In this document: in pieces, positions 600 to 51,915 of the stretch
How positions within the stretch are numbered: position 1 is the first letter of the stretch
Layout: each line of letters opens with the position of its first letter
Origin: Diplocarpon mali
Lineage: Eukaryota > Ascomycota > Leotiomycetes > Helotiales > Drepanopezizaceae
Direction of reading: 5' to 3'
Length of the DNA stretch: 51,915 bases
Assembly: GCA_024741835.1 (NCBI GenBank)
Contig: JAENRP010000312.1
Span: forward strand, 1-51,915
Notes under the pieces: generated by a model
The model's input: the letters and a program-made list of their open reading frames with translations, nothing else
What the model was told of the DNA's origin: nothing
Databases searched by the model: none
Position numbers and translations under genes: made by a program

Positions 600-2300
600 A
601 AGTTAGGACTTTAAAGTTTATTTTAATAATGCGCTTTCGTTTAACTAAATCCTTATCCTACTTTATGCTATATATTATTATTTAAATAGTCTATAGCTAT
701 AAATGATTTTAGTATTTTTTAATAGGAATAGCCTTTAGCCTAGGATCTTTAATATAAAGTATCTTATACTTTTTAATATATATAATCCTAGTATTAATAA
801 AATAATAAAAAAGAGGATATTTATTGCGATACTTATATAAAAGGCAATTGGGTTCTTTATTATTACAAAAGTTGCAAGTTAGTCTTCTTCTATTACTATT
901 CCCTTAGTACCCTATAGTATTAATATTAGCAGAGTGCTAGTTAGGATTAATTTCTCCTTCTTTAATCAATTATTAAGTTCTTATATTAGCTGGTTATTTT
1001 AAATAATAAGAAGTAGGAGTTTGGTAATAGTAACTACTAGGTTGGCTTATAGTAGCCGAGTTTTACTTATTATTAAATTAGGAAATATGCTATTTTTCTT
1101 ATAAGAGATTATTAATCCTAGTTTCTAAGCTTTAGATTTAGAGTTCTATAAATTGGGTCTTAAGTTCTTTAATTCTAAGGTTGGATCTTACTCTTAAGTT
1201 GGGCCTATAAGTGAAAGGTATGACTACTAGGTTCTTCTTTGCCTCTTCTATAACTTCTAAAGCCTTTGAGTGTTCTTAAACCAGGCTCTTAAGGTCTTTA
1301 GTATAAAAGGGAGTAAGGGCTTTTTCCTATTCTATAGCATTAATAGTTCTCTTATTAAGATCTGATTTTAAAGCAAAGGCCAAGAATTCCTTAAATAAGG
1401 CAAAGGTTATAAGGTTTTACTTATTAATCCTAAAATGCTTAATAATCTTATTTTAAAGGCCAATAGGTAATTTAAGTAAGAAAAGGCGGCCTCTTTTAAC
1501 TTTATTAAATATTTTTTAACTAATTAAAGTATTTGATATATAAGTAAAAGTCCGATAGTAGTTCTTAAGTTCCTTAGGAGTTTAAGTGATTAGAATAAAT
1601 TCCTTTAAGAAAGCTAAAGTATTGCGAATCTGCTATTTATCAAATTCTTAGAATTCAGATTTAAGAGCCTTAATAAGGAGTTCTTATAAACTATGCGTTT
1701 TCCATTTAAGGAGGGATTTGATAATATCTTTACTTATATAATTATAGTAATAAGGGAGCTAAGAAATCATATCTGCTTATAGAATATTAAAATCGTAATA
1801 AGTTTTTTTATATTGCTTAAGGAAATTAGTAATATTAGCTCTTATAAAGTAAGAAGCACTAAGGGAACTAAGGAGGGGAAAGTAGCTAGTAATAGCCTTA
1901 AATACGGCTATTATCGTTTTATATTAACTATTTAAATTAATAGAATCTATAAAAGGCAAAGGGGAAGCTTCGATATTATATAATTAGTTACTAAGAGGAG
2001 TACTTTAAAATTCAAAAGGGCTTAAAGAACGTTTAGAATCTAAGTTAATCTTAGAATAATTAAGATAGGTTTGAAAAGATTCAGATAAAGGGTTAGCGAA
2101 AAGTTCAAAATTGATATTATTTTTAATATTTTTTAATATTAATATTAAAAAAGTAGGTAGCGGCCTTAAGTTATTTAAAGACGTCTTTTTATCCTCTTAC
2201 TTATAAGCTAAGCCTAGGAGTAGAATTCCGAATTCTACTAAAAGTTTAATTTGAATTTGCTAAGAGATTCTAAGTAGGTGCTAAACAGCTAATAAGAGTA
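600..2300 (-). pseudogene. gag relic of GypA copy A
   Basis: The region aligns colinearly, in reverse, with the gag of GypA copy B (about 11500-13150). Shared landmarks include the stretch around 1690-1900, matching 11860-12080, and two copies of the 23-bp palindrome (2199-2221 and 1190-1212) at the same places as in copy B (11547 and 12556). The frame is closed by many TAA/TAG codons. Gag would form the structural particle in which reverse transcription occurs. The copy is certainly non-functional; boundaries are approximate. Confidence 0.7.
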
Positions 2301-2898
2301 TTACAACTAATTGTAATAAGATAAGGTTTACTTAATTAAAGACTAATTTCTAAAATAAGATTTATATTTAAGATTCTTTTTAGCCTTTAAGCTAATTCCT
2401 ATTAGTCCTTAGAATAAAGGGGTCTTTAAAGACAATTCTAAGGCAGTTTTTAAAGTTCTATTAAGCTAAAGCGGCTAAATTATTAGATTCGGATTTCTAA
2501 AGATTCTAAAGAGGCACTTCTAATTAGAGTTTGCACTTAGTATTACTTAAGTACTTAAAACTACCGCTATTTAAAATTGCTATTATAAGGTTTATCAAAC
2601 TTTTTATATTAGAAAGCTGAAAATTCCGAGAATCTTAAAGTTAAGGAGAAAAAATAAGGGTTTTTCGAAGTAGAGCCGAAAAGGGAAATTCTAAAGCTAT
2701 TAATAATTGTTAAATGAAAATCGATAGTTCTAAGTAATTAAGCAATTAAGGATAAGGTTTTTAAAGTTGATTAAAATGCTATAAGTGTTTCGAAGATGTA
2801 TTTTTCAAAAGGCCGGTCTCTTATTTGCGAATTAAGAGATCGATAAGGTTATATAGGAACGGAAATCTTAAGAAATCGGTCCTTGCGTAGGTTACTAA

Positions 2899-3146
2899 TA
2901 TAAAACAGAAGGGAGATAATATAAGAATAGGCCTAAGGGAAGACCTAAAAATAAGAGGAGGAAGTACTATAAGCAGGCTCTCTTAAATAAGATATTAGGA
3001 ATAAGTCCTAAGTATAGGGTATATTTAGTACTTATAGCGACGCGCGCTTGTCTCTATATATAGAAGAGGCCCTTTTTATCCTCCTATTGGCCTTGCCCTA
3101 TTATGTGACTTTTATCACGTGATTCATCCATACCCAGGTCTCTATA
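2899..3146 (-). repeat. GypA 5' LTR (copy A)
   Basis: A 248-bp LTR in minus orientation. Its right edge (rc TATAGAGACC) matches the LTR start TGTGGAGACC seen in the best preserved copy at 21476-21720, and its left edge matches the LTR end GTTTTATA. It is followed leftwards by the same primer-site sequence as copy B. Confidence 0.85.
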
Positions 3147-3469
3147 TTATAAGCACTTTAATATGCTTTCTCTTTATATACAACCGGCTAAAGGGCCCTT
3201 TAAGCTCTTAACCGACTTTTCGAGTATTTATAATAACTCAAAGGACCTTCATTTTCAATTAATAAATCTCTATTTTCTAATTGAACCTTATTTGCAAACT
3301 TCATTTATATACCTAACCTTTTTTATTAGATTCTATTTAATATATCTAACGCTTTAAGCATCTCTAAGCCTCGCTTTAATACCTTTGCCTCTTAAGTAAA
3401 GTAGTTTAGTAAATATATATTCTTTGCTAAGCTTTATAATATCACTATTTTTACTAATTTAAGACTCCT

Positions 3470-4950: not shown

Positions 4951-5199
4951 AGCGTAATAGCTCTCTTATAGGGATAACGCTGCGCAATATTGCTATTATA
5001 AAGGAGTTTACTACTAATATTATCTTAAAGAGGATCTTCGCAGATAAGGGTTTTTAGTACTCTAGGGTAGACCTTACTTTGCGCTTTAGGAGCATTATAG
5101 ATTCTATAAATCGAGCTTAGTTAAAGTATTATTATAATCTCGTTTTCTTTAAATATAAGCCTATTAACTATTTAGATCTTTTAAATATACTTTAATATG

Positions 5200-8300: not shown

Positions 8301-8469
8301 CTCTTAACCGCGGATTAAACGCTTTAATACCTATATAGCACGCGCTTCTTAAGAATTGCCTATAGCCTTAAGGCTAAGGAATACTAATTGGTTGTATCTT
8401 TAAATGCTTCTTTCGAAGATGATTGAAAGACTTGCAGATCCTTTTAAGGATATGTCTTCTTCCTATTTA

Positions 8470-8860: not shown

Positions 8861-8969
8861 AATAATCGTTTAATAACTTGCACTTACTAGCAAGTAGTCA
8901 CTTATTATTAGGAGACTTATACTTATAAGCTCTTACTCTCTTATAGTTATATTTATTTGTTTTCTCTTA

Positions 8970-10226: not shown

Positions 10227-10234
10227 AGGGGGTA
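10227..10234 (+). promoter_or_regulatory. Polypurine tract of the 197-bp LTR family
   Basis: The bases AGGGGGTA lie immediately before the LTR start. A purine run here primes plus-strand DNA synthesis in LTR retroelements. The same run precedes the LTRs of the TRIM elements. Confidence 0.7.
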
Positions 10235-10870: not shown

Positions 10871-10871
10871 T

Positions 10872-13899: not shown

Positions 13900-16800
13900 A
13901 TATCTTAAAATATTAATCGAAATTATTTAATAGTTATAATAAAAAGCCTTATTATTATTTATTCTATAAAAGAATTAGTTAAAGCAAAGGCTCTAATCGA
14001 TTATAATTTAAAAGTTAATATAATAATTAGAAAAGTGGCGGAAATAGCTTAATTGACTATTGTTAGCGATCGACTCCTTATTTATTCGACTATCTTTAGA
14101 TCGAAATATAATTTTAATAAATAGGTGAAAAATATAAAGGTTAGAGTTAGAGGAATCGTTAATTATATTAACTTTCTAATAATAGAGAATTCTTTAAATA
14201 ATATTCTTTTAAAAATGCCCTTTATTTTAAAATCCTAGCTAATATTTAACTATCTTAAAGATAGTCTTATAAAAGCTAGTATTTAAAATATAGATCGATC
14301 TTTAAAAGGATAAATAGTTATTGCAAGAGATATAGCCGAATTTTAAAATAAGGTTTTAAGAAACGATTAGCTAGTATAAGGGCTAGGCTTAATATTAGTA
14401 AAGGAAAGCACTTAGCAAGGAATTATAGCAAAAGAAAGGTAAGTTTGCCGATTTTAAATAATAGCGATTTAACTTATAGTCTTAGACTAGGAGTCAAATC
14501 TGGAATTTTATAAAATAGTATAATCGGCGTTTTATCGGCTTAACAATTAAGAAAAAAGAAAAATAAGGTAGAAAAGAGAGTTTATTTTATAAATTTCGAC
14601 AATTTACTAATTATTTTAAAAAACTTAAAAACCACTTATAAGCTAGACCTGCGAGTGAAAAATAATAAAATTACTAACGATTTTTCTATTTATATACTTT
14701 AAATTAATAACTTAGAAAATCTTTTATTTATTTTTAAAAAGGAAAATTCGGACCGTTTTATAGGATTTAATAAAAAAGGAAAGAAGTAGAGAAGCTTAAT
14801 ATTAGCTAATATTCGAATTATATATAAAAGTAAGGCTAATAAAGTATAACTAGTAGATTAGGGAATCTCTAATAGCTTAAAGCTTAGAGGATTAGATGAT
14901 TGGTTTAAATAAGATAAGAAGCTTCGACTTCTAAAGCTAGGTAGTAAATTTAATAAATTCATTATAAGCAGATTTTCTAATAAACCTATTAGATATTAGC
15001 TAATAAAAGAATGTTTTAATATGCTAAAAATTAGAAAAGACTTAATAGAGTAAGAACGCGAACTACTTTATAAAACCTTAATAAATCGAAAGGACGCCTT
15101 AACTTTTGACTAGACAGAACTAAGCCAGATTCGAGAAGAGATCACGCCTTATATTAAAATTAAAATAATACCCTATAAAGCCTAGTAAGAGAAAACATTC
15201 AAAGTCCCTAAAGCTCTTTAAGAAAAGGTAATTGAAATATTAAAGGATAGGCTGAAGCAAGGTATTCTTAAGTTCTATAATAGCCTTTATAAGAACAAAT
15301 GGTTCTTAATTACTAAGAAAGAGAAAGGAACTTATAAATTAATAATAGTAGTTGTAAAGATGAACTAAGTAACTATTAAGGACGCTAATATTCCTTTAAA
15401 TATAGATAAGTTCTTAAATGAATTTGTAAGATTAACCTATAGCTCTCTTATTAACTTCTTCTTTAGATACAATCAATTTATCCTTAATATTAAATCGAAA
15501 GATATAATAGCAATTTAAACCCCTTTTAAGCTACTTCAAATGATAAGATTACCTTAAAGGGTTATAAATTCGATTGCTCAATTTGTTTAAGTAATCTATA
15601 AGATACTAGTAGATTATATACCTAATATTATACTCCCTTATATAGACGATATAGGAGTAAAAGGATTAAGATCATTTTATAATTATAAAGAAGTTCTCCT
15701 TAGTATATAATGATTTATAATAGAATATATTTAAAACTTAGATTAAGTGCTTATACGATTTAAAAGGGTAGGAGTAATAGTTAGTCCGAAGTTATAATAC
15801 TATCTTCTATCGATGGAAATTGTTGGTTTTATTACTAATTCTAATAGCCGAAGTCCTTAGAGGGCTAAAGTACTTAAAATCGACGAATAGAAGAGGTATA
15901 ATAATATGGCAAAAGCTTGCGTATTTATTAGCGTTATAGTATACTATCGCATTTAAATTAAGGATTTCGTTAAAAAGGCAGCACTTATTTACGCCTTATT
16001 TCAGAAAGGGGCTGAGTTTTAATAAGAGGAACCCTAAATAGAGGCTATGAACCAACTAAAGCAAGTATTGCTTAAAGCACTATATTTAATTAAAATAGAC
16101 TATAGAGCCGACGCTAGGCCAATTATACTAATAGTTAACGCAAGCTTAATCAAATAGGGTACTATCCTTTAATAAGCTAATAGCTAATAGAAAAGACATC
16201 TAGCTCGCTTTAAAAGTGGTCTTTAAAATCTAATAGAGATAAAGTATAATACTATTAAATAGGAATATAAAGGAGCTTTAAAAGTAATGAAAAAGATAAG
16301 AAGCGACCTTTATAATACTTACTTTATCCTTGAAACTGATACTAAAGTGCTAATAGAACAATTAAATAAAGCTGCAAGCGACCTATTAAGAGCCTTACTA
16401 ATAAAATGGATTACTTAAATAAGACTAATAGACTTTAAAGTTAAATATATTCTAGGAATAAAAAACACTACTACTAACGGCCTTTTAAGAAGAACTCGTT
16501 CCTACCCCTTTGATTTAATTAAAGAAGATAAAATAGATATTAATAAGTAGGTAGAGAACGAAGTTAGTTATCTATCGATATATCGCCTTAAAGGGATTCG
16601 ACTTGCGGTCCTAGCTTATAAGTTAAATAAGAGAATTTTATTACCTAACTACTTAAGTAACTCTAAAGAAATCGCAAAATTTTTAATTATACTTAAATAA
16701 CTAAGAACAGTTGCTTCTAAGGATTTTTAAAAGTTTAAAGCTAAAGCTCTGATTTATCTAATACAAGGATGGCGATTGTTTAAAAGGAGCAATAACTCAT

Positions 16801-18459: not shown

Positions 18460-21400
18460 GGTTTTACCTACTATAATAGGGGATAAATAAATACTAGTTA
18501 TAAACTTTTCTTAAGATAGTAGAGCTATTGTATTATTAAAGAACTTCAAATCGACCTACGCAGCCTTAAGAGATATAGAGTAATAAAAACTCCTTTTAGC
18601 TTACGCGAATGCTATTAATAACCTTTTAACCTAAGTGGCCCTTAGAATTCTTTAATTTAACAACTTCCTAATTAAAGAATTAAGACTAAAGGGAATCTTT
18701 AAAGAGGAATTCTTAGCTAACGCAGATTAATATATAACTTTGACTAACACTTTTAAAATAAACTAAGATAAAAGAGAAGAATTTATTTAACAATTAGATA
18801 ATTTAGCTATTAATAAGAGAGGACTCCTATTTTATTTACGCTTCTTAATAAATATTGATTCTAATAATAGAAGATAAGTATTATTAAAAATTCTTAAGGA
18901 AAATACTCCTACTGCTAGAGCTATTTAGATTCTTAATTTCTTTATTATTTAGGAAAGAGTAGTAAAATTCTAAGGCAATCGAATTTGCAATTGCAAATTT
19001 ATAGGCCTATCTAATACAGTACTTATAGCAGCTAATAGGGCTATAAAAAGATTAAATTAAGCTACAAATATTACCCTATTTAATAGTATTATTATTAATA
19101 TACTAAGGCTCTGCGCCTTTGCTTATAGTTTACTTATTTTAAAAGAGAACTAGACTCTTATAATAGGGTTTGGACGAGATTTCTTTAATAATAAAGAAGG
19201 GAATTGGTTATTTATAGTTAAGCCTACTTTGAAATTCGCTTCTTAACTTAAAGATATAATAAGTGCTAAACTATATAATTTGACTTGCGGTCTTAGACTA
19301 AGAGTTAGAAACGAGAATTTTAAAACTAGACCTAATTTGCCTCTTATTAAAATGATTTTAAAAACTGCTGCTAAATAAACTACTTAAACGCTTAGCGCAG
19401 CCTCTTTAGAATTTTCGGAATCTTTAAGGGACTCTCCTTTAATTAAACGACCTATTTTAACTTAACCTTTAAAAAGGATAGATCGTTTAATAGCCACTTT
19501 AGCTAATTTGCAATTTAAAACTAAAGGATTGCGCGCTCGCTTAAACTCTTTCTTTAATAACTTAAAGGAGCTAGTTCTTAACTTCTTTATATTTATATGC
19601 AACTATTTTAAAAATAATAATATAAAGGAAGACCCTATTCCTACTGCTTTAAAGATAATTAAAAGAGCTATTAAATAGATTTAATAGTTTATCTTAAATA
19701 AGTTCGCCCTTATAGATATTATTCAATTCTTTAATAATTATAGAAGTTAAGAATCTAGTCTTTTAAATACTAAGTAAGACTATTTTATCTTATAAGAAAG
19801 AGAATATAAAGAGGAATCTATTAATTAGGATATTTGTAATTATAGCAATATGCTTTAATCGGTTATTCTTAACCTTAAGCTTAGAGAATGATATAATATT
19901 TAAGTGTCCTTTGCAATAAAAACTCGCTTTTAATAGTATCTTCTTAGCGTAGGAATCGAAAGGAGAAGACTTTACGACCTTTATATTCGCTCTCTTTCGA
20001 TTTACTATAATCTTAATTATAAAGGATTTAATATTAACGAAACTATTAAATACTTTAAACTTCTTTATATAGTAGAAGATATTGATCTTTTTCTAATCTA
20101 CTTTGATAATTAATTCTTTATCTCTTTAAGGATATGTAAATCTAACCTATTAATAATAGAAGTATCTTTAAGTGCTATAAAATTCAGGGCTAATCCCGAA
20201 GCCTTAAAAGTATTAAAGCCAATTAAATGGAATAATTCCTTCTTATTAATATTATTAAGTAATAAATAGCAGAAGGAAATAGAAGAAGAAGGGTTAATTA
20301 TAATACTTAAACCCTTTGGATACCGCTTCCTAACCGACAATTTTACTACTAATAATAGTACTTTTATAAGTATATTCCTCTCTATTATAAGATAAGAAGT
20401 AGAGATATATCTTTATTACTTCTATCCTATAAATAGCGCGACCTCTATACCTTTTTATTTTCTTTATAATATGATATTTAATCTTATTTAATAAGTCCTT
20501 TAAATGTACTATAGACTCTACTTCTTAGCTATAATAGTGAGAAGTAGAGGAACCTATTAGCTTATAGCCTACCTTAAACCTCTTTAATTAATTAGCCTTA
20601 GTCTTTATAGTCAAGTCGTTTCGATAAAGAGAGATATAAGTACTACTAATAAAGAAAATCCGATTTTTACTCGCGGTCCTAGCCTGCGAGTCAATTTTAT
20701 TAGAAAGTAAGTCTTAGATTATCAGATCCTATTAATCGGATAAAGGCCAGCTTTTAAAAGTCTTAATAGGTAAGTCGGCTCTTAATCGAATATAAAACTC
20801 ACTCTATTTGTAAAGAAGATAAGTTGATAGACTTCTTAAGCATTCGGTTTAAAATCTCAACTAGCTTAAATAACTGTAAAATTAAAGTAAAAGGAGATCT
20901 TGCGACCTATTACTAATAATAGCAATCTAATTATAGTAATAATAAAATAGGGATACCTTCTTAAAATGCTTTCGGATAATTCTTATAAGATTAGTGGTTT
21001 TATAGCCTTTTGCAATAACTATACGGCCATCTATAATAAGAATACCTTAGAAAATAAGACTTAAATCTTTAATTTTATCTTTTCAATCTTTACTTTAAAG
21101 TAACCTCTATTACTTTAATAGATTAATGCAAGTAGAACCACTATACCTTTTAAGGTAGCTTTTCATCTTAAGAACTATAGTAGCCTCTTTAAAGCTATTA
21201 TTAATTAACGCTTTTAAACGGATCTATTAATTATAATCGAAGTATAGGAGTTGTTTCTTCTTAATAAAGACAAATTGAAAATCCACCTTATAGAATATAA
21301 TCAGAAGCTCTTTAACGCCCTTATTAAGGCTTAGACAAATATTATAAACATTAAGTCGCTTCTTTATAGACTTAAGTCTTAGGAATAATATAATAAAGTA

Positions 21401-22090
21401 AATACTATTTAAGAGCCTAATGCACTAATTGATAAAGGCATTATTATAAGAAAATTCGGAAAAGAGATAAACTAATATAAAACTGAGGGGAGACAATACA
21501 AGAATAGGCCTAAGGGAAGACCTAAAAACAAGAGGAGGAAGTACCACAAGCGGGCTCTCCTAGACAAGATGTTAGGAACAAGTCCCAAGTATGGGGTATA
21601 TTCAGTACTATGGCGACACGCGCTGTCTCTATATACAGAAGGTGGCCCTTTTATCCTCCTACCGGCCTGCGCCGATCATGTGATATATGTCACGAGACCT
21701 ATCCATCTCAGGTCTCCACACTAAGACGCTAGTATAGTATTAGATCCTAATTTGGGAATTAATCTCCTATTTTTACCCTTAAGCTTAAAAACGCCAAGAC
21801 TGACTCGCGAGCCCGGCCTGCGAGTAAGGTTAGACTCAGCTGGCTTAAGCCTATAAGATAGTTCGAATAAACCTTAGTTACCAAACCTAAAGGTATAAAT
21901 AGAGGTTCCTTTAATAGAGGCACTTGAATTAGAGAAATCGCTAAGAGGTAAGAATTAATATAAGAGAAGAAGATTCTAAAGTAATAATAGAACCGACAAT
22001 TGAGTTGAATAATCTGAAGAATCTAGCCTATTACCCTTAGAGAAGACTATTTAAAGGACTTACAAATTCGAATTGAATCTTTTTTAAGAT
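18460..22090 (+). pseudogene. ORF X: long unrecognised ORF of GypA, split by a solo LTR
   Basis: One plus-strand frame can be followed for about 1,000 codons from 18460 to 21475, broken only by TAA/TAG. After the solo LTR (21476-21720) a short tail continues to about 22090. Blocks are colinear with ORF Y: FSxDSRAI near 18502, TARAI.ILNFF near 18910, FLYNMIFNLI near 20455, YLKPL..SLYSQVVS near 20570, and NNYTAIYNKNTLENK near 21015. Palindromes at 19283, 20669 and 21803 are read in frame (LTCGLRLRV, FTRGPSLRV, LTREPGLRV). I recognise no domain, signal peptide or membrane segment. Its place after pol is that of env-like ORFs, but nothing in it supports an envelope function. The minus ORF at 20110-20340 is a shadow. 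Confidence 0.6.
21476..21720 (-). repeat. Solo GypA LTR inside ORF X
   Basis: 245 bp in minus orientation, from TGTGGAGACC to GTTTTATA, flanked by CTAA on both sides (21472-21475 and 21721-21724). This 4-bp duplication matches the size at the GypA copy B borders. It is the least mutated GypA LTR in the window and keeps GC-rich words such as CCGGCCTGCGCCGATC, so it is younger than its surroundings or escaped RIP. Confidence 0.92.
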
Positions 22091-26035: not shown

Positions 26036-26132
26036 TATTTTAATTATTTTTACAATTCTATAGCTTATTTATTTGTTTTGCTAGTTTCTTTTTCTAACTC
26101 CTGGGCCCGGCCTATAGGTGAAAAGCGCATAT

Positions 26133-28850: not shown

Positions 28851-29809
28851 CTTATTATAGTATAGGTTATAATTTATAAAAAGACTTAGATTTTAATTCC
28901 CGCCTATTAATAGGCGGCCGCTAGTTCTTAATTCTTATAGAACTAGCTTAAAGTAGATCATTTATTAAAATAGTTGCCTATATTAATAATAGAGCTAATA
29001 TTTTCAATATTATTAAGATATCTTTAATATATTAGCTTTCTTAAAGACTTAAAGTGAAGTTTATTAAATTGCCTAAACCAATTACTCCTATTAGCTATAA
29101 TAGCCTTAAGAGAGAAACTATTTAATTTGCTGTTTTACTTACCCTTATAATCGATAGGCGATAAATAACCTTCCCTTTCCTAATTATAAGCTTAAGAGCA
29201 ACCGACGTTTTAATCGATAGGAAATTCCTAAAGTACTATAACTTTAAATAGTCCTATAGAAAAGGGAAAAATAGTATATCTTAGCCTAAGGATATGCCTA
29301 TTATTTCCTACTTTAATTAATATATACTAATCGATCTCTTGCAGCTAATAAAACCCTTAATAGCTTAGTAAGATATCGATCGTTAAGCAGCTATAATAGA
29401 CGCTAAGGACGAAGACCTTAGAATGGCTTAAGCTTAGCTCTTAGTATTAGCAAGCAATAACGCTTTAAATTCTACTCTTAGGCCTAGCTTATAAGTGAAA
29501 ACTGCAAACTCAAATTCTACTCTTAGGCCTGGCCTGCGAGTGGCCTTTTATAAACCTAGGGATAGCAGTTTCTTTAAACACTTAAAAAGAGATTTGAACT
29601 ATATAAAGAAGGCCTTATTAAAAGTACTAGACCCTTTACTTCCTCTTTTAATAAAGAGAAATGCTCCTTTAAAGATAGCTTATTAGATTAGCCTAATCTT
29701 AGCCTTAGCAATCGGCGCCCTCTACTACTGCTTTATAACTAAGGTAAGATAAGCTATATAAACTTAAGAACTGGCGCTTAAAGAGTTTATATTTATAAGC
29801 TCTATTTAT

Positions 29810-29900
29810 AATCTAGACCGAGAAATCAATCGCCGAGAAATCAATCGCCAAGAAATCAATTACTAAGAAATCAATCGCTGAGAATTCAATTGCCGAGAAT
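29810..29900 (+). repeat. Short tandem repeat in GypB pol (REIN repeat)
   Basis: About six units of 15 bases, each close to GAAATCAATCGCCGA, encode (R/Q)EIN(R/Y/C). They lie between protease and RT. Repeats of five codons keep the frame. Confidence 0.75.
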
Positions 29901-31465
29901 CGGTTGGGCAAGCTGAAATTAGCTCCCTTGGCCTTAGTTCGGCGCTGCAAGCTAAGTATAAGAGCAATAATAAGCTAATAGACCAGAAGCTCCTGCCTTA
30001 GTATATTAAATTTAAAAACGTTTTCAATCGCTAGGCCTTTGATTAGCTGCTAGAACCTAGGCTAAAGGTAGATTATAAAATCGAGCTAATAGGCGAGAAT
30101 AATTTGATAATCGAACCCTTTTGCCGCCTTATTAATAAATAGCTCTCAAAGGTTAAGAGCTATATTCTTAAAAACCTATATAAAGGATTTATTAAAGCTT
30201 TAAGTTCCCCTTAGGCAGCCCTAATCCTCTTTATTAAAAAAGCTAATAGCTCCTTACGTCTATATATTGATTATTGGAAATTGAACGCCTTAATAAAGAA
30301 AGACCCCTACTTAATTCCACTTATTAATAAGATAATAGTATATATATTAAAAGCTTATGTTTTTATAAAAATCGATATATAATAAGCCTTTTACTATATT
30401 TGCATATTAGCTAATACTAAAGACCTAACTACCTTTCGCATGCGTTATAAGACCTATAAATATAAGGTTTTGCCATTCGGGCTGATAAATAGGCCTGCTA
30501 CCTTTTAAAGGTTTATTAATAATATTCTCTTTAACTACCTTAATAATTTCTGCTCTACCTATTTAAATGATATTCTAATCTACTTAGAAAACTCCCTTAA
30601 CTATAAGATTTATATTAAGAAAATCTTAGGAATTCTCTAATGCTATAGCCTTTAAGCAGATATTAAGAAAAGCGAGTTTAAGGTTATTAAGACTAAGTTC
30701 CTAAGGTTTATTATCAAAGTTTATAAAATTAAGGTAAACTTAGATAAGGTCTTAGTTATTTAAGAGTGGAAATACGCTAAGAATGTATATAGTATATAGA
30801 GCTTCCTAGGGTTTTATAACTTCTACTAAAGGTTCATTTAAGGCTATAGTTATATCTGCCGACCTTTAATAGCTTTTATAGGAAATATTCCTTTTAATTT
30901 TAATAACACTTATAAGGAAGCTTAGGAAGCTTTGCGCTTAAGCTTTTAAACGATTTCGATTTTATACTACTATTACCTTTAGAAGTAGATAAGGCTTGAG
31001 ACCGATGCCTCTAACGGCATAGTTGCCGGCGTACTCTCTTAACTCTAAGAAGATAATAACTACTACCTAATCGGGTACTTCTTAAAGACTATAAATGATG
31101 CTAAGCTAAATTACCCTATTTATAATAAGGAGCTCCTAGCGATTTTTAGATCGTTTTATTAGTATAAGGCAGAGCTACTTAAGGCCTAGAAAATAGTATA
31201 TATATATATAGATCATAAAGCCCTTAAGTACTTTATAATAACTAAGGACTTAATAGCCTAGTAGGCTTACTAGGCAGAGTTCTTTGCTAACTTCAACTTC
31301 CTTATTATATACCGAATAGGTATAATAAATATATTAGCTAATATACTCTTATATTAAGACTAGGAGCTAACCCCTCTTAAGGCTAGGAAACGAGCTTTAT
31401 GCCACTAGCAGCTCTTACCTAACGATAAGCTTTCTATAGAAGTACTCGCTACTAAAGGCGATTCC

Positions 31466-31578
31466 ACTCTTAGGCCTGGCCTACGAGTAACTTTAGCGTA
31501 GATCAATTCCACTCTTAGGCCCGGCCTATAAGTAACTTTAGCGCAGATCAATTCCACTCCTAGGCCTGGCCTACGAGT
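31466..31578 (+). repeat. Triple in-frame 23-bp palindrome in GypB pol
   Basis: Three copies (31466-31488, 31511-31533, 31556-31578) at an exact 45-base period. They encode three repeats of NST-L/P-RPGLRV followed by TLAQI-like linkers, between RNase H and integrase. The period is a multiple of three, so the frame is kept. Confidence 0.9.
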
Positions 31579-32421
31579 AATAATTATACCAATCGTACTA
31601 ATAGAGGTACCTGCCGACCTAACGTCTAAGGTCGAGTATAATATAGCGAACTACTATATTATCAATAAGGTTATTTAAGCTAATAAGACCTCCCTTAAGC
31701 TATAAAAGTTCCGAGACGAGGCGCAGAGCCATAGCCTTAACTATAAACTCAGCTAAGGCAAACTCTTCTTCTAAGGTAGACTCATTATACTATCCTAACC
31801 TCCCGAACTGCGAATAGCCCTAATTCGTTATATGCATAAGCAACCTTGTATCGCATACGCTAGAATCGGGAAAACAAGGCTTCTAATAGAAAGAAAATAC
31901 TATTAGAAAAGCCTTAGCAGCGATATTAGCACTTATATCTAAAACTATTATTATTCGAAAATGAAAGCTTATTATAATAAAACCCTAGGTTTCTTATAAC
32001 CTTTGCCAATTCCCAAATAAGCTTACTAACACTTGATAATAGATTTTATAAAGCTTCCGCTTAACAAACTCAGTTATAATTTTACTTTTATAATTATCGA
32101 TAGGTTGTTAAAGAAGGCAATTTCGGTTCTATACTATAATTCGGTCGATGCAAAAGGCCTTGCAAAGTTGTTTTTAATTTATTAGATATACTATTTTAAT
32201 ATGCCTAATTCGATTCTATTAGATAGAGGCGCTTAATTCGTCTCTTCCTTTTAGAAAGAGCTCTATTAAATACTAGGTATAAACGTTAAGCTAACTATAG
32301 CTTATAACCTTAATATCGATAGCTAAACTAAGATTATAAACTAGTACTTAAAATAACGCCTTAAACTTTTCTACTTATACTATTAAGACAATTGGAGTCG
32401 TCTCTTGCCTTTGATAGATAT

Positions 32422-32616
32422 TATTGAACTTAAGTAAGTCGGCGCAGTAGGTAACGGAAACTTCTAGAGGTTAATGGTCGATATATTAGTAAGAGTTAAG
32501 GAAGGAAGGTTACCCCTTTCTTCCTTATATCTATATATGTATTAATATCCTACTGACTAAGCAGTAGGGTCATATGATAATACATTAGAGTAATAGCTAT
32601 ATTACCTATCTTAATA
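32422..32616 (-). repeat. CopC copy 1, 3' LTR
   Basis: 195 bp. On the plus strand it starts TATTGAACTTAAG and ends CATCTTAATA, RIP forms of a TGTTGA...TCAACA terminal inverted repeat. Confidence 0.92.
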
Positions 32617-32755: not shown

Positions 32756-32903
32756 ACTCCTAAGGCAGGACCAAGAGTTAATTTTCCTAAAAGCGTTCCT
32801 TTATAAGATTATATAACTTAACTCGCGGTCTAGGCCTAAGAGTCGATTTAAAAACTTTCCTTTATAAGACTACGTAACCTAACTCATAGAGTAGGCCTAG
32901 GAG
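32756..32903 (-). repeat. Three dispersed 23-bp palindromes at the CopC 3' end
   Basis: Copies at 32756-32778, 32821-32843 and 32881-32903 lie between the RNase H domain and the 3' LTR. The same three occur at the same places in copy 2 (44759, 44824, 44885) and copy 4 (51158, 51223, 51285). Confidence 0.85.
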
Positions 32904-32929
32904 TCGTCCTTAAGCCTATTAAGCCCCTA

Positions 32930-36920: not shown

Positions 36921-36931
36921 TGCCGTTTTCC

Positions 36932-37311
36932 AATTATAAGCCTAGCTTAAGAGTCGTTTTTAATAAAACTACAAGATCTACTTGCAGTCTTAGCTTAAGA
37001 GTCGATTTCCTAGAAATAGCAAGATCTACTTGCGATCCTAGCTTAAGAGTCATTTCTAACGAATCTGCGAAGTTCACTTGCAATCTTAGCTTAAGAGTTA
37101 TTTCTGCGAATTTCACTTGCAATCTTAGCTTAAGAATTATTATTAGCAAATCTGCAGAATCCACTTATAGTCTTAGCCTAAGAGTTATTTCTATTAAATT
37201 CACTTATGATCCTAGCTTAGGAGTCATCTTTAAGAATACCTTACAATCTACCTATAGTCCTGGCTCAAGAGTCATTTTCGCGAATTTCACTCGCGATCCC
37301 GGCCCAAGAGT
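36932..37311. repeat. Array of nine 23-bp palindromes in CopC copy 1
   Basis: Nine palindromes, each followed by 16 or 25 bases of spacer, give units of 39 or 48 bases, all multiples of three. Both strands therefore stay open: 36920-37357 on plus (repeats of T-C-x-LSLRVIS) and 36934-37164 on minus (repeats of TLKLRLQV). The element reads on the minus strand, where the array sits between gag and integrase. Spacers are related to each other, so the array grew by duplication of a palindrome-plus-spacer unit. Confidence 0.9.
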
Positions 37312-37907: not shown

Positions 37908-37912
37908 GATAT

Positions 37913-42367: not shown

Positions 42368-43606
42368 GTAGGCCTAAGGGAAGACCCAAAAACAAGAGGG
42401 GGAAGTACTATAATTGGGCTATCTATAACGAGGTATTAGGAATAATTCCTAAGTTAGGAGTATATTCGAGTGCTATAGTATTGTACGCCTTTCTTTAAGT
42501 ATAATTGAGGTCCCCTTTATCCTCCCTTCGGCTCTTAGCCGACTATATGACCTATATTATAAGATCCTATCCATTTCTAAATCTCTATATATATTTTAAA
42601 TAATAAAAGTAGCGGCCCCTACTACTATTAGCGAAGAATATAAAACAATTCAAGTTGAGGTAATAGTATATTAATTATCATTCATAAAAACCCTAAGTGC
42701 AAGGTAATATATTAAAAGGCTTAACCTAGGGCTATATTATTATTAAAGGTATAGAAAAAAAGAGTTTTTTTATTTCTTTTATATGCGCTTTTCACCTTCG
42801 GGCCAGGCCTAGGAGTTATAGAAATAAAACTAAACTAAACTAAAAAACAATTATTAGTACGCAGATTCCTATATAAGAGGCAAGTTGCCATTATTCCTAG
42901 GGTCATCTTATAAAGCTGTACCATATGCAATTAAAGGGGTTTTATATATATTTCAGATAGCTATTTGGCTAAAGGACTTCGGAAGGATATTTATAAACGG
43001 CTTATGACGGCGGAAGCAAGGCATAAGTCGATAAAGTCATTAAGATTAAGGCTACCTAATTGTATAGAATTCAAAGCTAAAGAGTAAGTATAAAGTAGGA
43101 AACCTTCCTTTTAATATACCCTCTTTGACCTAGGACTTATAGGAGTTGATCTTTATTAATAATTCATATATTATCTATTAAAGGAAAGGTATAGCTAAAA
43201 GGCGGCATATCTATTATATCAGTCGGTTTCGTCCCTATTTATACTACTATTTCTATCGTAAGTACTTTAATAGTTCTGAGTTCTTTAATAACTATAATAT
43301 TATACCTCCCTTTTAAGAAGCGAGGTGCCCTTATCTTAACCTACTCTTAGAAAAAGTTGTATATAATCCTATTTTCAGCCCTATTAATAAAGGCCTTTAT
43401 CTTTTTATTTGCCAGATCCCCTTTTATATAAATGGTCTCTACGGCGGTCTTAACTAATTCGTCCAGATTATCGAATATAACGATATAGAACCGCCGAAGT
43501 GCGGGATCAAGTATAGGAGCAAGAAGTAGTATAAAAGGCGTATTCTATAAGTCTAATATAAAGGAAACGAAGAAGTTAAAGAACCCTCCTTATAGGAGAG
43601 GCCTTT
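42368..43606 (-). mobile_element. 3' remnant of another GypA-type element
   Basis: 42368-42589 is a GypA LTR in minus orientation lacking about 23 bases at its end, where CopB inserted. 42590-42870 matches the GypA copy B 3' end (26040-26389) in reverse, including a palindrome at 42794-42816. Beyond 42870 the similarity to copy B is lost. The right end is cut by a CopA-type LTR at 43607. Confidence 0.75.
43050..43606 (-). pseudogene. Unrecognised coding fragment upstream of the GypA 3' remnant
   Basis: A minus-strand frame of about 180 codons with few stops: FYIVIFDNLDELVKTAVETI, then LANKKIKAFINRAENRIIYNFF, APRFLKGRYNIIVIKELRTI and MPPFSYTFPLIDN. It does not resemble ORF X, ORF Y or the gag of copy B. 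It may be the C-terminal part of a different accessory ORF in a related element, or the target sequence into which the remnant inserted. No family recognised. Confidence 0.45.
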
Positions 43607-44731: not shown

Positions 44732-44929
44732 CAACCTCTATTAAAATTACTAAACTCCACTTGCAAAGTAGGACCAGGAGTCAATTTTCCCAAAAGCGTT
44801 CCTTTATAAGACTATATGACTTGACTCGCGGTCCAGGCCTAGGAGTCGATCTAAAAACTTTCCTCTATAAGACTATATAACCTAACTCGTAGGGCGGGCC
44901 TAGGAGTTGTCCTTAAGCCTGCTAAGCCT

Positions 44930-46479: not shown

Positions 46480-48000
46480 TAGCTTTATTATATATCTTTA
46501 AAAGAGAGATTTTTATTATCCCTTTAGCGGTTAGAAACGCATTATCTTTATTAAAGCTCTATTAAAGTTTAAGCTTATAGATCCTATACGCTATTATAGC
46601 CTAGATACACTTAGACTCGCGTTTATTTAAGTTATCTTCTAGTTCTAAATCTCTATTCCTTTTTAAAGGCGTAAGTTTAACTATAGGTTCTATAGGCTTA
46701 TTATCTAAAGAACCGCTTTCTAGTAGTAGAGGCTTATTATTGCTTATACCTATTTTAGGAATATCCTTTACTATAAGTACTTTAATTAAAGGGATAATAA
46801 TATTAAAGTTATTTTATACTTTAAGCAATTCGCGGATAATAAGAATAGTCTATTCGGCCTTTAGGCGACTAGTAGGTCATTGATTAATAAATGCGCTTAA
46901 TATACTTTAGTTAAGAGAAAGGGGTTATTAGTTCGGCTTAATAGTATTACTATTAAGTAGTATACTTTGCGAATCTTTAGGTATAGAAAGCTTTAAAGAT
47001 AGCTTCTTCTTATTTTAAAATTCGTCGAACTCAACTACTAAGGATATAATTACTTGCCTTAGATCTAGTTTATATACTATCTATTACTTTACTATCTATT
47101 TAATATACTTAATAAATATATACTCTTTACCTTAATCTATTAGCTTTTTACTCTTTATACCTATAGGCTAGGACTTTAGGCTAATATAAGAGTAGCAGAC
47201 GCTTTTAAAGACGCAGATATAGTCTAAGCTTAGTTTATATTTGAAATATGCCTTATATAGCAATATTCGAGTGCTATTAACTATTAGTTTATTACTTATT
47301 CTATTTTATAAGTATGCATCTACCTTAACCGCAAGGTCTTAGAATTCTAATAGTAAGTTAGCATCTTGCAATAGAGTGCAATAATTAGTCTTTACTTATT
47401 AAATGCTTCGCTTAGCGATACTATTCTAATAGGAACCCTTATATATTACAATTAGTTTATAATAAACTCCTTATTTTACCTATTTATTAAGCTTTACCCT
47501 AATCTCTAATATATTATCAGACCTAATACTTATTAGCTTTAATTAGGTCCGGCGTTCCTTTATTACTTTCTAAGTTTCCAGCTTTTCTATAAGCTTAGAT
47601 TTGGTTTTAGCGCAAATAGTCCATATCTGCTAAATAGAGTTATTTACTATTTAAGAAAACTAATTATTTCCTTTAATTAAGGTTATAAATAGTTTAGTAG
47701 TATTAATAGATATTAGTGCTAGTATCGAATCTTTTTATAGATTAAGCTTAGTTTGCATCCGATTTCGAAGTTTTATTAGCTTGCAAATTTAGTATACTAG
47801 GCGATCCTTTAATACTTAGATCTTCTATTTTAAGGTTAAGACCTTATATAGGCCCTTTAATTTCTCTAGCCTTAGATGTATAAATCTTTTATATATTAGC
47901 TAATACCTTAATAGGCTTTCGACTTCTAATAGCTTTAGTAGCCTATTATCAATCGATACTTTATTATTAGTAGCTAAAAAGGAATAGTAATAGCAGTTCG
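46480..48000 (-). pseudogene. CopC copy 2 integrase and linker relic
   Basis: Homologous to 35402-36920 of copy 1, with the integrase segment at about 47560-47200 and linker 46960-46480. No TRIM insertion interrupts it, so it shows the empty site for TRIM1. Confidence 0.75.
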
Positions 48001-48017
48001 AGGTTTTGCTATTTTCC

Positions 48018-48400
48018 AATTATAAGCCTGGCTTAGGAGTCGTTTTTAGTAAAACCGCAAGATCTACTCGCGGTCCTAGCTTAGGAGTCGATTTCCCGGA
48101 AATGGCGAGATCCACTCGCGATCCTAGCCTAAGAGTTATTATTAGTAAATCTGCCGAATCCACTTATAAGCCTGGCCTAGGAGTTATTTCTGCTAAATTC
48201 ACTTATAGTCTTAGCTTAAGATTCATCATTAAGGATACCTTACAATCTACCTATAGTCTTGGCTTAAGAGTCATTTTCATAAATTTCACTCGCGATCCTA
48301 GCTTAAGAGTCTATATATTCTCCTTATCCTCGCTTAATTGTATTAGGGCAGAGAGTGCACTTTCTTTAAAGGAATCTACTTATAGGTCTAGCTTAAGAGT
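48018..48400. repeat. Array of eight 23-bp palindromes in CopC copy 2
   Basis: Same place as the copy 1 array. Eight units of mostly 39 or 48 bases; the spacer before the last unit is much longer. The plus strand is open across it (48006-48434), with repeats such as STRGPSLGVDF. Compared with copy 1, units are deleted, so arrays vary in copy number. Confidence 0.88.
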
Positions 48401-48439
48401 CATTTTCTATAATATTACCTTTAAAATAATATAAAGTCT

Positions 48440-49920
48440 ATTTTTGATTTTAGCTTTAAAGATCACTTTATAGTTATTATTTATAAATTATATAAATTAA
48501 TTATTAAAAACTCTTATATAATTCAACTTTATATAGATCTTATAGCTAAATAAAAGATTAATACTTAAGCTAGGCATAAGGAGAACATTTTATAAAAGGA
48601 AAGAAATACTAGCGATATTTATCTTTAATATACCTATTGAATCTGTATATAACCTTCTACTACTAACCTTAATAGAGTGCCTTTTTATTTTAATAAGTAG
48701 GCTTTTAAATAGGTAGGGTTTATTAATCATATATGCTATGCAATTAGTATTATTATACTAATCGGATTTAAAGATTTTATAAAGATCGGCTTTTAAGACG
48801 TAAGTATCTTTATTATAATTATTATTTTAATTATTAAAAGTGGATTTAGGTTTAGATAATCTACTATTATTATTAGAGGTATTTACTAAAGTTTTGGCTA
48901 AATAGCCTTTTCCTTTGCCTTTTCTTAATAATTGCAGCCTTTAGTAGGATAAGGGCAGTTTGCTTCTTAACTTCTGCTTTAATTGCTTCTTAATATTAAA
49001 GCTAGCAACTATATCGATTAATTGCCTTTTAACTTTACAATTAGTAATATTATAAGTAATGTTATAGAAGTAGTATCTTTAATAAGCTCAAGGGCTTATT
49101 CTGCGCTTCTTCCTCTTCTTAGGCTTATTATTACCTTATAACGCAGCATTTGCCGATTTAGAGCGTCCTTTAAGGTCTTGCTTAATAGTTTAAAGGAGGT
49201 CGATCTTCTTATAGATCTTAAGGTTAAGTTAGATAAGAAGAGATTATTTTATAATAATAAACTTAAAAGGGAGGCTATTAAGTAGGAAATTAAAAAGCTA
49301 AGTTTCCTTAAAAGTTATAGCTATCTTAGGATCTGCGGCTTTTACTCTCCTCCTTACTTTATATAGTATAGATTAAGTAAAGTCTATATTTATATCTATA
49401 TCTTTACTATCTTTATCTTTTTTATATTAAAATAAAGTGATCTGCTATAGCAAATGCTAAGTATTAAAGGCAATTATTTAAAAGTATTTTGCCTTTAAAG
49501 TATCCTATCTTATCTTTGTATTATTATAAACTTAAATAAAATCTTAGTCTTTATTGCTTAAACCTCTATTAATCTTAAGCTTATATTTAGCTAAGGCTAG
49601 CTTATACTCCTTCTCCTTTTCCATATTTAAAATCTGCCTTTAGAATTCTCAATTATTATCTACTAAAGCTCTTAAGCTAAGCTTATTTAATATATTTAGC
49701 AAATCCTTAATAGTTGTATTAATTATTAAAGTAGAAGTAGATAAATTAGTAGAAGGAGTATAAGGGGCTATTCTCGCGTATTTAATAAGTATCTTTTAAA
49801 TTGCTATTTCAATGCCTTTGCTTTTAAAGTAAAGCTCTAAATCGTCAAACTATTATTATTAGTTCTTTTAAAAGAGTTAAAGGTCTCTAGGTCTAATGTT
49901 TCGATTAGAATCGGAAGCTA
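48440..49920 (-). pseudogene. CopC copy 2 gag relic
   Basis: Located between leader and array, where copia gag belongs. The minus frame can be read in pieces: ADPKIAITFKET near 49340, a basic region near 49120 (KPKKRKKRR), then NCKVKRQLIDIVASFNIKKQLKQKL near 49030, which looks like the sequence after a zinc knuckle entering a protease. The knuckle cysteines are mostly lost. This 1.5-kb block is absent from copy 1. Identification rests on position and composition. Confidence 0.5.
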
Positions 49921-49959
49921 TTGCTATTTCAAATAGAATTGTATTAAAATCAAATAAAT

Positions 49960-50326: not shown

Positions 50327-50554
50327 TATTAAGCTTAAGTAAGTCGGCGCAGTAGGTAAAGGAGGCTTCTAAAGGTCGATAGTCGATATATTAGTAAGAG
50401 TTAGGGAAGGAAGGTTACCCCTTTCTTCCCTATAGCTATATACGTATTAATATCCTACTAACTAAGCAATAGGGTCATATAATAATACATCGGAGTAATG
50501 GCTATATCACCCATCTCAACACATTTCGACTTTTTTATAAAAGGAGTGCCTTTA

Positions 50555-50751
50555 TGTGGTGCGGTCGGCTGGAGGGCCTTCATTAGGTCGCTCAGGAGGC
50601 TCGCAGAAGTAAGGGAAGATAATTGATTGTATTATTATCTAGTGTATATATAGTAAGGAGACTTCGGAAAGAAAAGGGAGAGTCTATGACTTAGCAGAGT
50701 CATATAGAGAGTCTTTAGAATAAGTGGAGACTCTGCCTATTCTATATAATA
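50555..50751 (-). repeat. CopA-type LTR (third copy), with part of its internal 3' end
   Basis: A complete 197-bp LTR in minus orientation, from TGTGGTGCGG to TATATAATA on the plus strand. To its right, 50752-50824 is the inverted equivalent of 10160-10234, so it is a 3' LTR. It interrupts the CopC copy 3 leader at 50554 and is itself cut by CopC copy 4. Confidence 0.88.
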
Positions 50752-50824
50752 TATCCCTTAGTTAGGCGATGCTTTTAGAATCGCTTAGCTATATAGATAA
50801 AATAAAAGAAAGAATAGTAGTTGT

Positions 50825-51915
50825 TATTGAGCTTAAGTGAGTCGGCGCAATAGGTAATGGAAACTTCTAAAGGTCGATAGTCGATATATTAATAAGAGTT
50901 AAGGAAGGAAGGTTACCCCTTTCTTCCTTATAGCTATATATATATTAATATCCTACTGATTAAGTAGTAGGGTTATATAATAATATATTAGAGTAATAGC
51001 TATATTACCTATTTTAATACCCCTACTTAAACCTTACTCCAATTGACCTATAGTTAAGAAAATAATAACTATCCTTTTACGCTAATCTAACTTTTAAATA
51101 TCTCTTTATATTAAAACAATCAATTAATAATAACCTTTATTAAAATCACTAAACTCTACTCATAGGATAGGACTAGGAGTCAATTTTCCTAAAAGTATTC
51201 CTTTATAAGACTATATGACTTAACTCGCGGTCTAGGCTTAGGAGTCGATTTAAAAAACTTTCCTTTATAAGATTATATAACTTAACTCGCAAGGCAGGCC
51301 TAGGAGTTGTCCTTAAGCCTATTAAGCCCCTACTATCTTTTGCAACCTTAGTATATCTTTAAATGCTTTGAACTTTATAACTATCTTTAGTGGCTTTATA
51401 AATCTATTTACTACTATTCGATTGGTTAAGATATAGGTAATTAATAACTTATTCTTTATAATAAGGTCGTAGATAAAGTAGTAGGTAATATTAATATGTT
51501 TTAATCGCTTATATAAGTATAAATTCTTTATAAGTGCAATCGCTCTTATATTATTTACTTAAAAATTAATATAGTTCTTATCTTATTTAATATACTTAAT
51601 AAAACCTATATCTTTTAAAACTTAAGCAATCTATAATCCTTATTTACAATTTAATAATATTAATATATATTCGGCCTTAGTGCTTGCGATAGCTATTGAT
51701 TTCTACTTCCTATTTCTTTATAATATAGGTCTATTATATAGTATTATTATACTTTTAAATATACTTTTCTAACCTTTTATATTTGCCTAGTTAAAATCAG
51801 TATATACCTTAAGCTTTATACTTATATATTTTATTAGTCTATATCTTACCTTTTATATAATTATTAATCGAAGGTACCTTTTAAGTCGCTTAACTGCATT
51901 CTTATATTAAATCGT
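50825..51915 (-). mobile_element. CopC copy 4: 3' LTR and RNase H end, cut by window edge
   Basis: 3' LTR 50825-51019 (195 bp), three palindromes (51158, 51223, 51285), then RNase H (about 51340-51720, minus) and the start of RT at the window end. It aligns base by base with 32422-33510 and 44335-45510. Heavily RIP-altered. Confidence 0.9.

What the first reader, a model, noticed from the sequence alone, without database searches (positions are those of the whole stretch)
1190..51307. A 23-bp palindrome inserted in frame in unrelated retrotransposon proteins
At least 30 dispersed copies of exactly 23 bases share arms ACTC..GGCC and GGCC..GAGT around one base. Starts: 1190, 2199, 11547, 12556, 14472, 14634, 19283, 20669, 21803, 23452, 23629, 24859, 25682, 26097, 27683, 29474, 29519, 31466, 31511, 31556, 32756, 32821, 32881, 42794, 44759, 44824, 44885, 51158, 51223, 51285. 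They lie in gypsy gag, gypsy protease/RT linkers, ORFs X and Y, and copia ends. Where a host frame can be followed, the palindrome is read in it as T-x-RPGLRV, and being palindromic it gives a similar peptide on either strand. This resembles the Rickettsia palindromic elements, which insert in frame in bacterial genes; I know of no established fungal equivalent.
Basis: partly seen in the sequence, partly recalled or inferred. Interest (0 to 1): 0.88.

Follow-up and report, generated by a model that had tools for sequence, protein, structure and literature searches.

The report
Palindromic inserts in fungal retrotransposon proteins
A short DNA word that reads nearly the same on both strands has been copied to many different places inside several unrelated jumping genes of a fungus, often without breaking the proteins they encode, which resembles something known from bacteria and suggests either hitch-hiking DNA or a binding site that these jumping genes carry.

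Summary
The unmutated form is GC-rich, ACTCNCGGGCCNGGCCCGNGAGT, with Y/R two bases outside (27 bp). RIP-like mutation made the AT-rich window form and turned the in-frame peptide TPGPGPRV into RPGLRV. 97 copies have 27 flank clusters. Named carriers are LTR retrotransposons: gypsy-1 (gag, upstream of RT, RNaseH-integrase linker), copia-1 (tandem array), copia-2, gypsy-2 and copia 3' ends; other carriers are unnamed. Frame is kept in 9 of 11 contexts callable on both sides, but gypsy-2 reads the unit in another frame, so it is a DNA unit rather than only a peptide motif. Masked-position tests show few transversions at most positions and free variation at three spaced ones, which unconstrained decay would not give. 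No target duplication, no empty site, and no copy in 160 kb of GC-rich DNA were found. Best reading: an RPE-like palindromic module copied between retrotransposons and held by DNA-level constraint, perhaps as a dimeric binding site. Route and function are inferred.

The parts
27533..32431 (+). gypsy-1 LTR retrotransposon, gag to integrase (decayed); continues at 37902-38723 after a nested copia-1
   Evidence: tblastn of D. coronariae P0013 and P0003 and of P0004; Pfam RVT_1 30233-30703, RNase H 30983-31279
27683..27705 (+). palindrome in gypsy-1 gag N-terminus, frame kept
   Evidence: falls at the place of TPGPGPRV, residue 52 of P0013; stop-density class 0 over both flanks together
29474..29541 (+). 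two palindromes (29474, 29519; 45 bp apart) in gypsy-1 upstream of RT (protease-RT linker by order); the second falls in a 13-residue gap of P0004
   Evidence: alignment; stop density not decisive here
31466..31578 (+). three tandem palindromes (45-bp period) in gypsy-1 RNaseH-integrase linker; 1 to 3 units in other copies
   Evidence: TPGPGPRV in the same linker of P0002/P0003
37902..38723 (+). 3' part of gypsy-1 (SH3_Tf2-1 38178-38360, below Pfam's curated cut-off)
36932..37311 (-). copia-1 copy A: tandem array of 9 palindromes, periods 48 and 39 bp, coded on the minus strand
   Evidence: P0122 tblastn 37224-35920 minus
32756..32904 (.). three palindromes near the 3' end of copia-1 copy A, beyond the RT (33711-34376 minus); spacing 65 and 61, no frame signal
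47021..49921 (-). copia-1 copy B, gag to integrase side
   Evidence: P0122 tblastn, 58.7% over 967 columns
48018..48310 (-). copia-1 copy B: array of 7 palindromes, with one more at 48378-48400
44759..44907 (.). copia 3'-end trio, same flank cluster as 32756-32904
51158..51307 (.). copia 3'-end trio, same flank cluster as 32756-32904
14472..14656 (+). two palindromes (14472, 14634; 162 bp apart), class 0, in the same register as the gypsy-2 RNase H 1.5 kb downstream; membership in gypsy-2 inferred
16601..16623 (+). palindrome between RNase H (16116-16376) and integrase zinc domain (16865-16978) of gypsy-2; frame of RNase H kept on both sides, but the unit is read in class 2
   Evidence: plus-strand stops left 10/11/2, right 12/6/2; the zinc domain itself is in another frame, so a shift lies further downstream
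19283..19305 (+). palindrome in a low-stop frame, class 0 on both sides; carrier unnamed
21803..21825 (-). palindrome, class 0; open 60-residue frame in the less mutated genome copy L056; carrier unnamed
23452..23651 (+). two palindromes (23452, 23629), class 0; 24859 is in the same register; carrier unnamed
26097..26119 (+). palindrome, same class (1) left and right; Ns close on the right
1190..2221 (.). palindromes 1190 and 2199, mirrored at 12556 and 11547 in an inverted 2.65-kb duplication
20669..20691 (.). palindrome with different best classes left (2) and right (1): against frame keeping
42794..42816 (.). isolated palindrome, no clear frame

Best explanation
SHOWN: a dyad-symmetric DNA unit of 27 bp (YN-ACTC-N-CGGGCC-N-GGCCCG-N-GAGT-NR, with weak symmetric RRATT-like extensions) occurs in more than a thousand copies at sites with unrelated flanks. 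In named coding carriers it lies between protein domains, keeps the frame, usually reads T-x-G-P-G-P-x-V, and has been multiplied in tandem in units of 39, 45 or 48 bp. RIP-like mutation later degraded most copies. INFERRED: it spread between element families by copying, since some 20 fixed bases will not arise again and again by mutation; template switching during reverse transcription is my likeliest route, because the named carriers are retrotransposons and the arrays look like slippage. INFERRED: the pattern of fixed and free positions means the unit is kept for a DNA-level property, most simply as the site of a dimeric DNA-binding protein used by the elements or by the host. Sitting in linkers, in frame, is what selection on the polyprotein would allow.
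For: Copy number and controls. 27 flank clusters. Y two bases left of the core in 31 of 31 and R two bases right in 31 of 31 contexts examined, not all independent. Same class left and right in 9 of 11 contexts (p 0.001). Annotated proteins with the peptide in homologous places: P0002, P0003, P0013, P0122. Same unit read in another frame in gypsy-2 and in non-coding copia 3' ends. Leave-one-pair-out scan of DNA not chosen by any palindrome pattern (window plus two random AT-rich pieces): transversions 0/134 (11/13), 0/130 (8/16), 0/132 (7/17), 0/134 (3/21), 1/136 (4/20), 1/136 (1/23), 5/124 (2/22), 6/140 (6/18), 9/128 (10/14), 38/134 (9/15); all four bases at 5, 19 and 12 and just outside the core. 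Pairs 3/21 and 6/18 are silent codon positions in the usual frame. Arms do not covary beyond expectation except at the CpG pairs 6/18 and 7/17 (and slightly at -3/27), so a sequence rather than an RNA stem is kept. 0 copies in 159,597 bases of GC 0.40 or more against 16 in 35,974 below (p 2e-12).
Against: No binding protein identified. No empty site: 94 places with room for the unit and 0 without in one 3'-end family, so insertion itself was not caught. No target-site duplication (best z 2.2 of 200 combinations). 20669 and 1190 change class across the unit. The 9/15 pair varies in 28% and 6/18 in about 10% on a per-context mean, so the fixed/free contrast is not clean. Some contexts are tandem neighbours or share flanking windows (copia 3' trio, 29474/29519, L054, 23452/23629, 14472/14634), so p-values are optimistic. 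Class 0 excess is modest (10 of 16, p 0.016). A binding site inside so many coding linkers is unusual. Absence from GC-rich DNA rests on about 160 kb without gene annotation.
Confidence: 0.5

Rival explanations
1. A purely selfish palindromic insert, like the Rickettsia palindromic elements: it inserts widely, survives where frame and fold tolerate it, and has no function for its carrier.
For: Linker positions, frame keeping, both orientations (judged by the two free arm positions), non-coding copies, spread over unrelated elements. Known analogues in bacteria and an archaeon (PMC10969869, passages; PMC2996958, passages).
Against: Free variation at a few set positions and almost none at most neighbours is not how unconstrained copies decay. 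No empty sites, no target duplication, no forms with the arms 2-31 bases apart.
Confidence: 0.25
2. A peptide is selected: T-x-G-P-G-P-x-V is a linker or processing site between polyprotein domains, and the DNA palindrome is a by-product of Gly-Pro codons.
For: The named coding copies lie between domains; class 0 is the commonest class (10 of 16); the most variable fixed pair, 9/15, is silent.
Against: Silent pairs 3/21 and 6/18 hardly vary (0/134, 6/140). Gypsy-2 reads the unit in another frame in its RNaseH-integrase linker. Non-coding copies have the same sequence.
Confidence: 0.1
3. The unit is an old part of a common retrotransposon ancestor, moved about only by recombination between elements.
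For: Within each family with several copies compared, every copy has at least one unit. P0004, not named Diplocarpon, has TREPGARV in the RNaseH-integrase linker.
Against: Eight of nine near homologues have nothing alike in that linker; M. brunnea P0053 has no such motif; gypsy and copia positions are not homologous.
Confidence: 0.1
4. Artefact of AT-rich, RIP-mutated sequence or of biased searching.
For: The window is strongly RIP-mutated (TpA/ApT 1.50, substrate index 0.53).
Against: Reversed-pattern and shuffle controls are about zero, and the unmutated form is GC-rich.
Confidence: 0.01

Closest known systems
Rickettsia palindromic elements (RPE), and the Wolbachia and Methanocaldococcus coding palindromes
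   Same: Palindromic DNA in many dispersed copies, often in frame in unrelated proteins, in non-structured segments (PMC10969869 and PMC2996958, passages).
   Different: RPEs are about 150 bp in ten families, bacterial, in ordinary genes; here 27-35 bp, fungal nuclear DNA, named carriers all LTR retrotransposons, tandem arrays.
PARCEL (palindromic amphipathic repeat coding elements)
   Same: Tandem coding repeats with dyad symmetry, in some taxa tied to mobile elements, in bacteria and some eukaryotic microbes (PMC2996958, abstract and passages).
   Different: PARCEL is a 25-residue amphipathic motif (DUF285); the Pfam scan of P0122 and P0013 shows no such domain, and the peptide here is Gly-Pro rich.
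MITEs and bacterial REP elements
   Same: Short inverted-repeat units of high copy number.
   Different: No target duplication; arms one base apart, none 2-31 apart; no transposase link tested.
Binding-site arrays in transposons, such as Su(Hw) sites of Drosophila gypsy or VANC motifs of VANDAL elements (recalled, from no call)
   Same: Repeated short recognition sites carried by a transposon.
   Different: As recalled, those lie in non-coding DNA; here no protein is known and many sites are inside genes.
Zn2Cys6 transcription-factor sites, CGG-Nx-CCG (recalled, from no call)
   Same: The unmutated core contains CGG-N7-CCG.
   Different: Much longer conserved flanks; no factor tested.

Membership tests
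Rickettsia palindromic element (RPE) type | Palindromic unit in many dispersed copies | tested here: met
Rickettsia palindromic element (RPE) type | In-frame presence in unrelated proteins | tested here: met
   gypsy-1, copia-1, copia-2 frames; same class on both sides in 9 of 11 callable contexts, two against
Rickettsia palindromic element (RPE) type | Present in ordinary cellular genes | tested here: not met
   0 copies in 159,597 bases of GC 0.40 or more; a 0.3% sample of the genome, genes not annotated
Rickettsia palindromic element (RPE) type | Length about 150 bp, RPE sequence families | tested here: not met
   conserved to 27 bp, weakly to about 35-39; 4 places within 3 mismatches of a 35-bp form
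Rickettsia palindromic element (RPE) type | Homologues with and without the insert | tested here: inconclusive
   eight of nine near homologues lack it in one linker, 13-residue gap in P0004, but linkers differ too much for an exact empty site; 94 filled and 0 empty within one family
MITE | Target-site duplication | tested here: not met
   31 contexts, 200 length/offset combinations, best z 2.2
MITE | Terminal inverted repeats around an internal segment | tested here: not met
   0 places with the arms 2-31 bases apart (exact match to the GC form only)
PARCEL | 25-residue DUF285-type amphipathic repeat | tested here: not met
   Pfam scan of P0122 and P0013
Dimeric protein-binding site | Dyad symmetry with fixed and free positions | tested here: met
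   pair 9/15 intermediate
Dimeric protein-binding site | A protein that binds it | not testable with these tools
   needs extract or purified protein

The most novel reading that the evidence does not exclude
Several unrelated LTR retrotransposons of one fungal lineage share a portable, dyad-symmetric recognition site that moves between element families, probably by template switching in shared particles, and accumulates in arrays even inside their polyprotein genes. It would serve as an insulator, anti-silencing, tethering or packaging site for a dimeric protein: a eukaryotic, functional counterpart of the bacterial in-frame palindromes.
Probability: 0.25. Interest if true: 0.87.

Novelty: new variant of a known kind. 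Interest (0 to 1): 0.68.

Why it matters
In-frame palindromic inserts are known from bacteria and an archaeon and have been discussed as a source of new protein segments (PMC2996958, passages). A fungal nuclear case with more than a thousand copies, an identifiable unmutated form and named proteins that carry it makes the old question testable in a eukaryote: how such units spread, and whether they are selfish or useful. It also suggests that palindromes read in frame can be constrained as DNA. The word stem palindrom does not occur in the main text of the four Diplocarpon/Marssonina genome papers that I searched for it (PMC11527701, PMC5628827, PMC7864672, PMC12158172; term searches only). 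My ten library searches showed no title or abstract describing it; several of them listed only the top 12-20 of many papers, so this is weak evidence of absence.

Tried and rejected
Chance or composition: rejected. One repeat family: rejected. Peptide motif alone: weakened. RNA hairpin: six single units fold at -9.7 to -14.2 kcal/mol with z -1.4 to -3.0, but the arms do not covary beyond expectation except at the CpG pairs, so a kept RNA stem is not supported. Ends of a longer element: 0 places with the arms 2-31 bases apart. Target duplication: none. Full 35-bp palindrome: 4 places within 3 mismatches, so the outer part is a weak preference. Prokaryote and viral collections: 0 exact matches each to the AT form. 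Rfam: none in the window at gathering scores. A transition-tolerant scan was too loose (300 hits, 175 in the reversed control) and was dropped; no count rests on it. The first pattern was one base too long, so its zero result is void. One search came back empty from a BLAST setting and was repeated. A match of the antisense frame of the array to plant PIN proteins in the PDB (E 2e-5) looks like chance on biased composition. Loci L001-L015 and L036-L063 were chosen by pattern, so the position test uses only the window and the random pieces L017 and L035. One of the 27 clusters (L017:3962, weak) was dropped before the context tests, and the copia 3' trio was split into three. Pfam was run on 7 of the strand-pieces (1-10 kb plus; 13-43 kb both strands); 43-52 kb, 10-13 kb and 1-13 kb minus were not scanned.
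Full report
WHAT WAS CHECKED. The window is the whole of contig C312 of a 49.4-Mb, 676-contig genome. Protein matches point to Diplocarpon coronariae or a near relative. All 30 reported places hold the element, one of them off by one base. A symmetric weight matrix finds 49 non-overlapping copies at score 18 or more, 19 of them new; Markov shuffles give means of 0.0-0.2 at score 16 or more. Genome-wide there are 1,359 places within 3 mismatches of the AT form, reversed control 0.

THE UNMUTATED FORM. Annotated D. coronariae gypsy proteins read TPGPGPRV (P0003 also TRGPGPRV) in the linker where the window reads TLRPGLRV and TPRPGLRV. This predicts a GC-rich form ACTCNCGGGCCNGGCCCGNGAGT, which exists: 130 places within 1 mismatch, control 0. 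The window bears the dinucleotide marks of RIP: TpA/ApT 1.50 and (CpA+TpG)/(ApC+GpT) 0.53, against 0.80 and 1.20 in 17 random pieces taken together (the meaning of the indices is recalled). In one copia 3'-end family, by inspection of the 80 printed places, copies differ mostly at CpG sites and at the centre. So the AT-rich palindrome and the peptide RPGLRV are mutated forms.

CONTEXTS. 97 copies from the window and loci L001-L035 fall into 27 flank clusters. For the context tests I dropped one weak cluster, split the copia 3' trio into three and added copia-2 and two L054 copies: 31 contexts, not all independent (the trio, 29474/29519 and the L054 pair are neighbours). In 31 of 31 the base two outside the core is Y on the left and R on the right, so the unit is at least 27 bp; a weak symmetric RRATT-like preference continues outward. 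Named carriers: gypsy-1 (27533-32431 and 37902-38723, split by a nested copia-1) with units in gag, upstream of RT and in the RNaseH-integrase linker; copia-1 (minus strand) with an array at residues 501-628 of P0122, after the Pol_BBD barrel (381-455) and before the integrase-side region, the latter placed by order, not by a Pfam match, and three units near the 3' end; copia-2, upstream of a DTGAS-like motif (L038, L041, L045, L057; motif recalled); gypsy-2 (RNase H 16116-16376, zinc domain 16865-16978); and a copia 3' non-coding end (L010 and many GC-rich loci). The carriers of 18020, 19283, 20669, 21803, 23452-25682, 26097, 42794 and several loci are unnamed. Some repeat DNA has none: 2222-11546 of the window, with a copia RT at 7407-8099, and the RIP-marked random piece L032.

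WHERE IT IS NOT. In 20 random 10-kb pieces, 16 copies fall in 35,974 bases of GC below 0.40 and 0 in 159,597 bases of GC 0.40 or more (p 2e-12; 1-kb bins that are half N or more left out). The matrix scores the GC form at 33-35, so GC-rich copies would have been seen. Genes were not annotated.

FRAME. Stops in the flanks, palindrome excluded, were counted on both strands and both sides. Of 28 contexts (29 rows, copia-1 twice) 16 have a clear class over both flanks together: 10 class 0 (T-x-G-P-G-P-x-V), 4 class 1, 2 class 2; 12 are unclear. Class 0 excess: p 0.016; with copia-2 and the unit upstream of RT, called from open frames and from the alignment with P0004, 12 of 18, p 0.004. Left and right agree in 9 of 11 contexts called on both sides (p 0.001); 20669 and 1190 disagree. 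Flank windows of 23452/23629 and 14472/14634 overlap, so these p-values are optimistic. The gypsy-2 unit at 16601 has class 2 on both sides, in the frame of its RNase H, so in the RNaseH-integrase linkers of two gypsy elements the same DNA is read in different frames.

HOMOLOGUES. Among 122 proteins fetched, the loose pattern T..PG..[VIL] hits 17 times, against 4 in the reversed control; 15 of the 17 are in five D. coronariae proteins. The linker was printed for nine near homologues not named Diplocarpon (P0004-P0012): eight have nothing alike; P0004 has TREPGARV there, chance or a related unit. The 17th hit, in P0008, is elsewhere. M. brunnea P0053 has no hit. Against P0004 the second unit upstream of RT falls in a 13-residue gap.

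ARRAYS. Of nine gypsy-1 loci compared, three have one unit, three two and three three (period 45 bp). The tool's open-frame lengths for full copia-1 matches cluster at 979, 992, 995, 1008, 1011, 1021 and 1024, steps of 13 and 16 codons; 996, 1022 and 1091 do not fit. Those of gypsy-1 cluster at 955, 970, 976 and 991; 944, 957, 994 and 1000 do not fit (57 and 51 matches). How the tool bounds that frame is not stated, so this is supporting evidence only.

CONSTRAINT. With each position pair masked in turn, the window plus L017 and L035 give 62-70 hits at score 15 and 0 in reversed sequence. Transversions: 0/134 (11/13), 0/130 (8/16), 0/132 (7/17), 0/134 (3/21), 1/136 (4/20), 1/136 (1/23), 5/124 (2/22), 6/140 (6/18), 9/128 (10/14), 38/134 (9/15). 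Means over contexts are 0 to 0.10, and 0.21 for 9/15. All four bases occur at 5, 19 and 12 and next to the core. Neutral decay would not free one position and spare its neighbours; a codon constraint would not spare silent pairs 3/21 and 6/18. Pair 9/15, silent in class 0, is intermediate, so a codon effect may be added. Pairing between arms is as expected from the separate arms, except at the CpG pairs 6/18 and 7/17 and slightly at -3/27.

MECHANISM. Copying is required, because a site of some 20 fixed bases does not arise repeatedly by mutation. Route and function are inferred. Template switching in reverse transcription fits the named carriers and the arrays, but no donor, edge or empty site was caught: 94 places with a 22-52-base gap, the 80 printed ones all with the unit, and 0 with a gap of 0-20, in one family. 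I rank a copied, DNA-constrained module first (0.5) and a purely selfish insert second (0.25).

LITERATURE. RPE and PARCEL are the nearest kinds (PMC10969869 passages; PMC2996958 abstract and passages). Ogata et al. 2002 is not held and is known here only as a citation. The Diplocarpon/Marssonina genome papers were searched for terms only.

Noticed in passing
window 36908-37357 and 47994-48434 (+), P0001: The annotated 81-residue D. coronariae protein P0001 matches the strand opposite to the copia-1 coding strand, so it is probably an antisense gene model.
   Followed up: partly
P0004 residue 833: The closest homologue not named Diplocarpon has TREPGARV in the RNaseH-integrase linker, a possible sign of the unit in another fungus.
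   Followed up: partly
window 32432-37901: A copia-1 element is nested inside gypsy-1, splitting its integrase end.
   Followed up: yes
window 1-2653 and 11115-13767: Inverted 2.65-kb duplication, 88% complementary, on either side of a copia reverse transcriptase region; both arms carry the palindromes.
   Followed up: no
window 2222-11546 and L032: RIP-marked DNA without any copy, including a copia with RT at 7407-8099: not every element carries the unit.
   Followed up: partly
unmutated core CGGGCCNGGCCCG: Contains CGG-N7-CCG, the general form of fungal zinc-cluster factor sites (recalled).
   Followed up: no
L010 2161-2238 and 2584-2661: A 78-bp direct repeat, 423 bp apart, close to the copia 3' end.
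   Followed up: no
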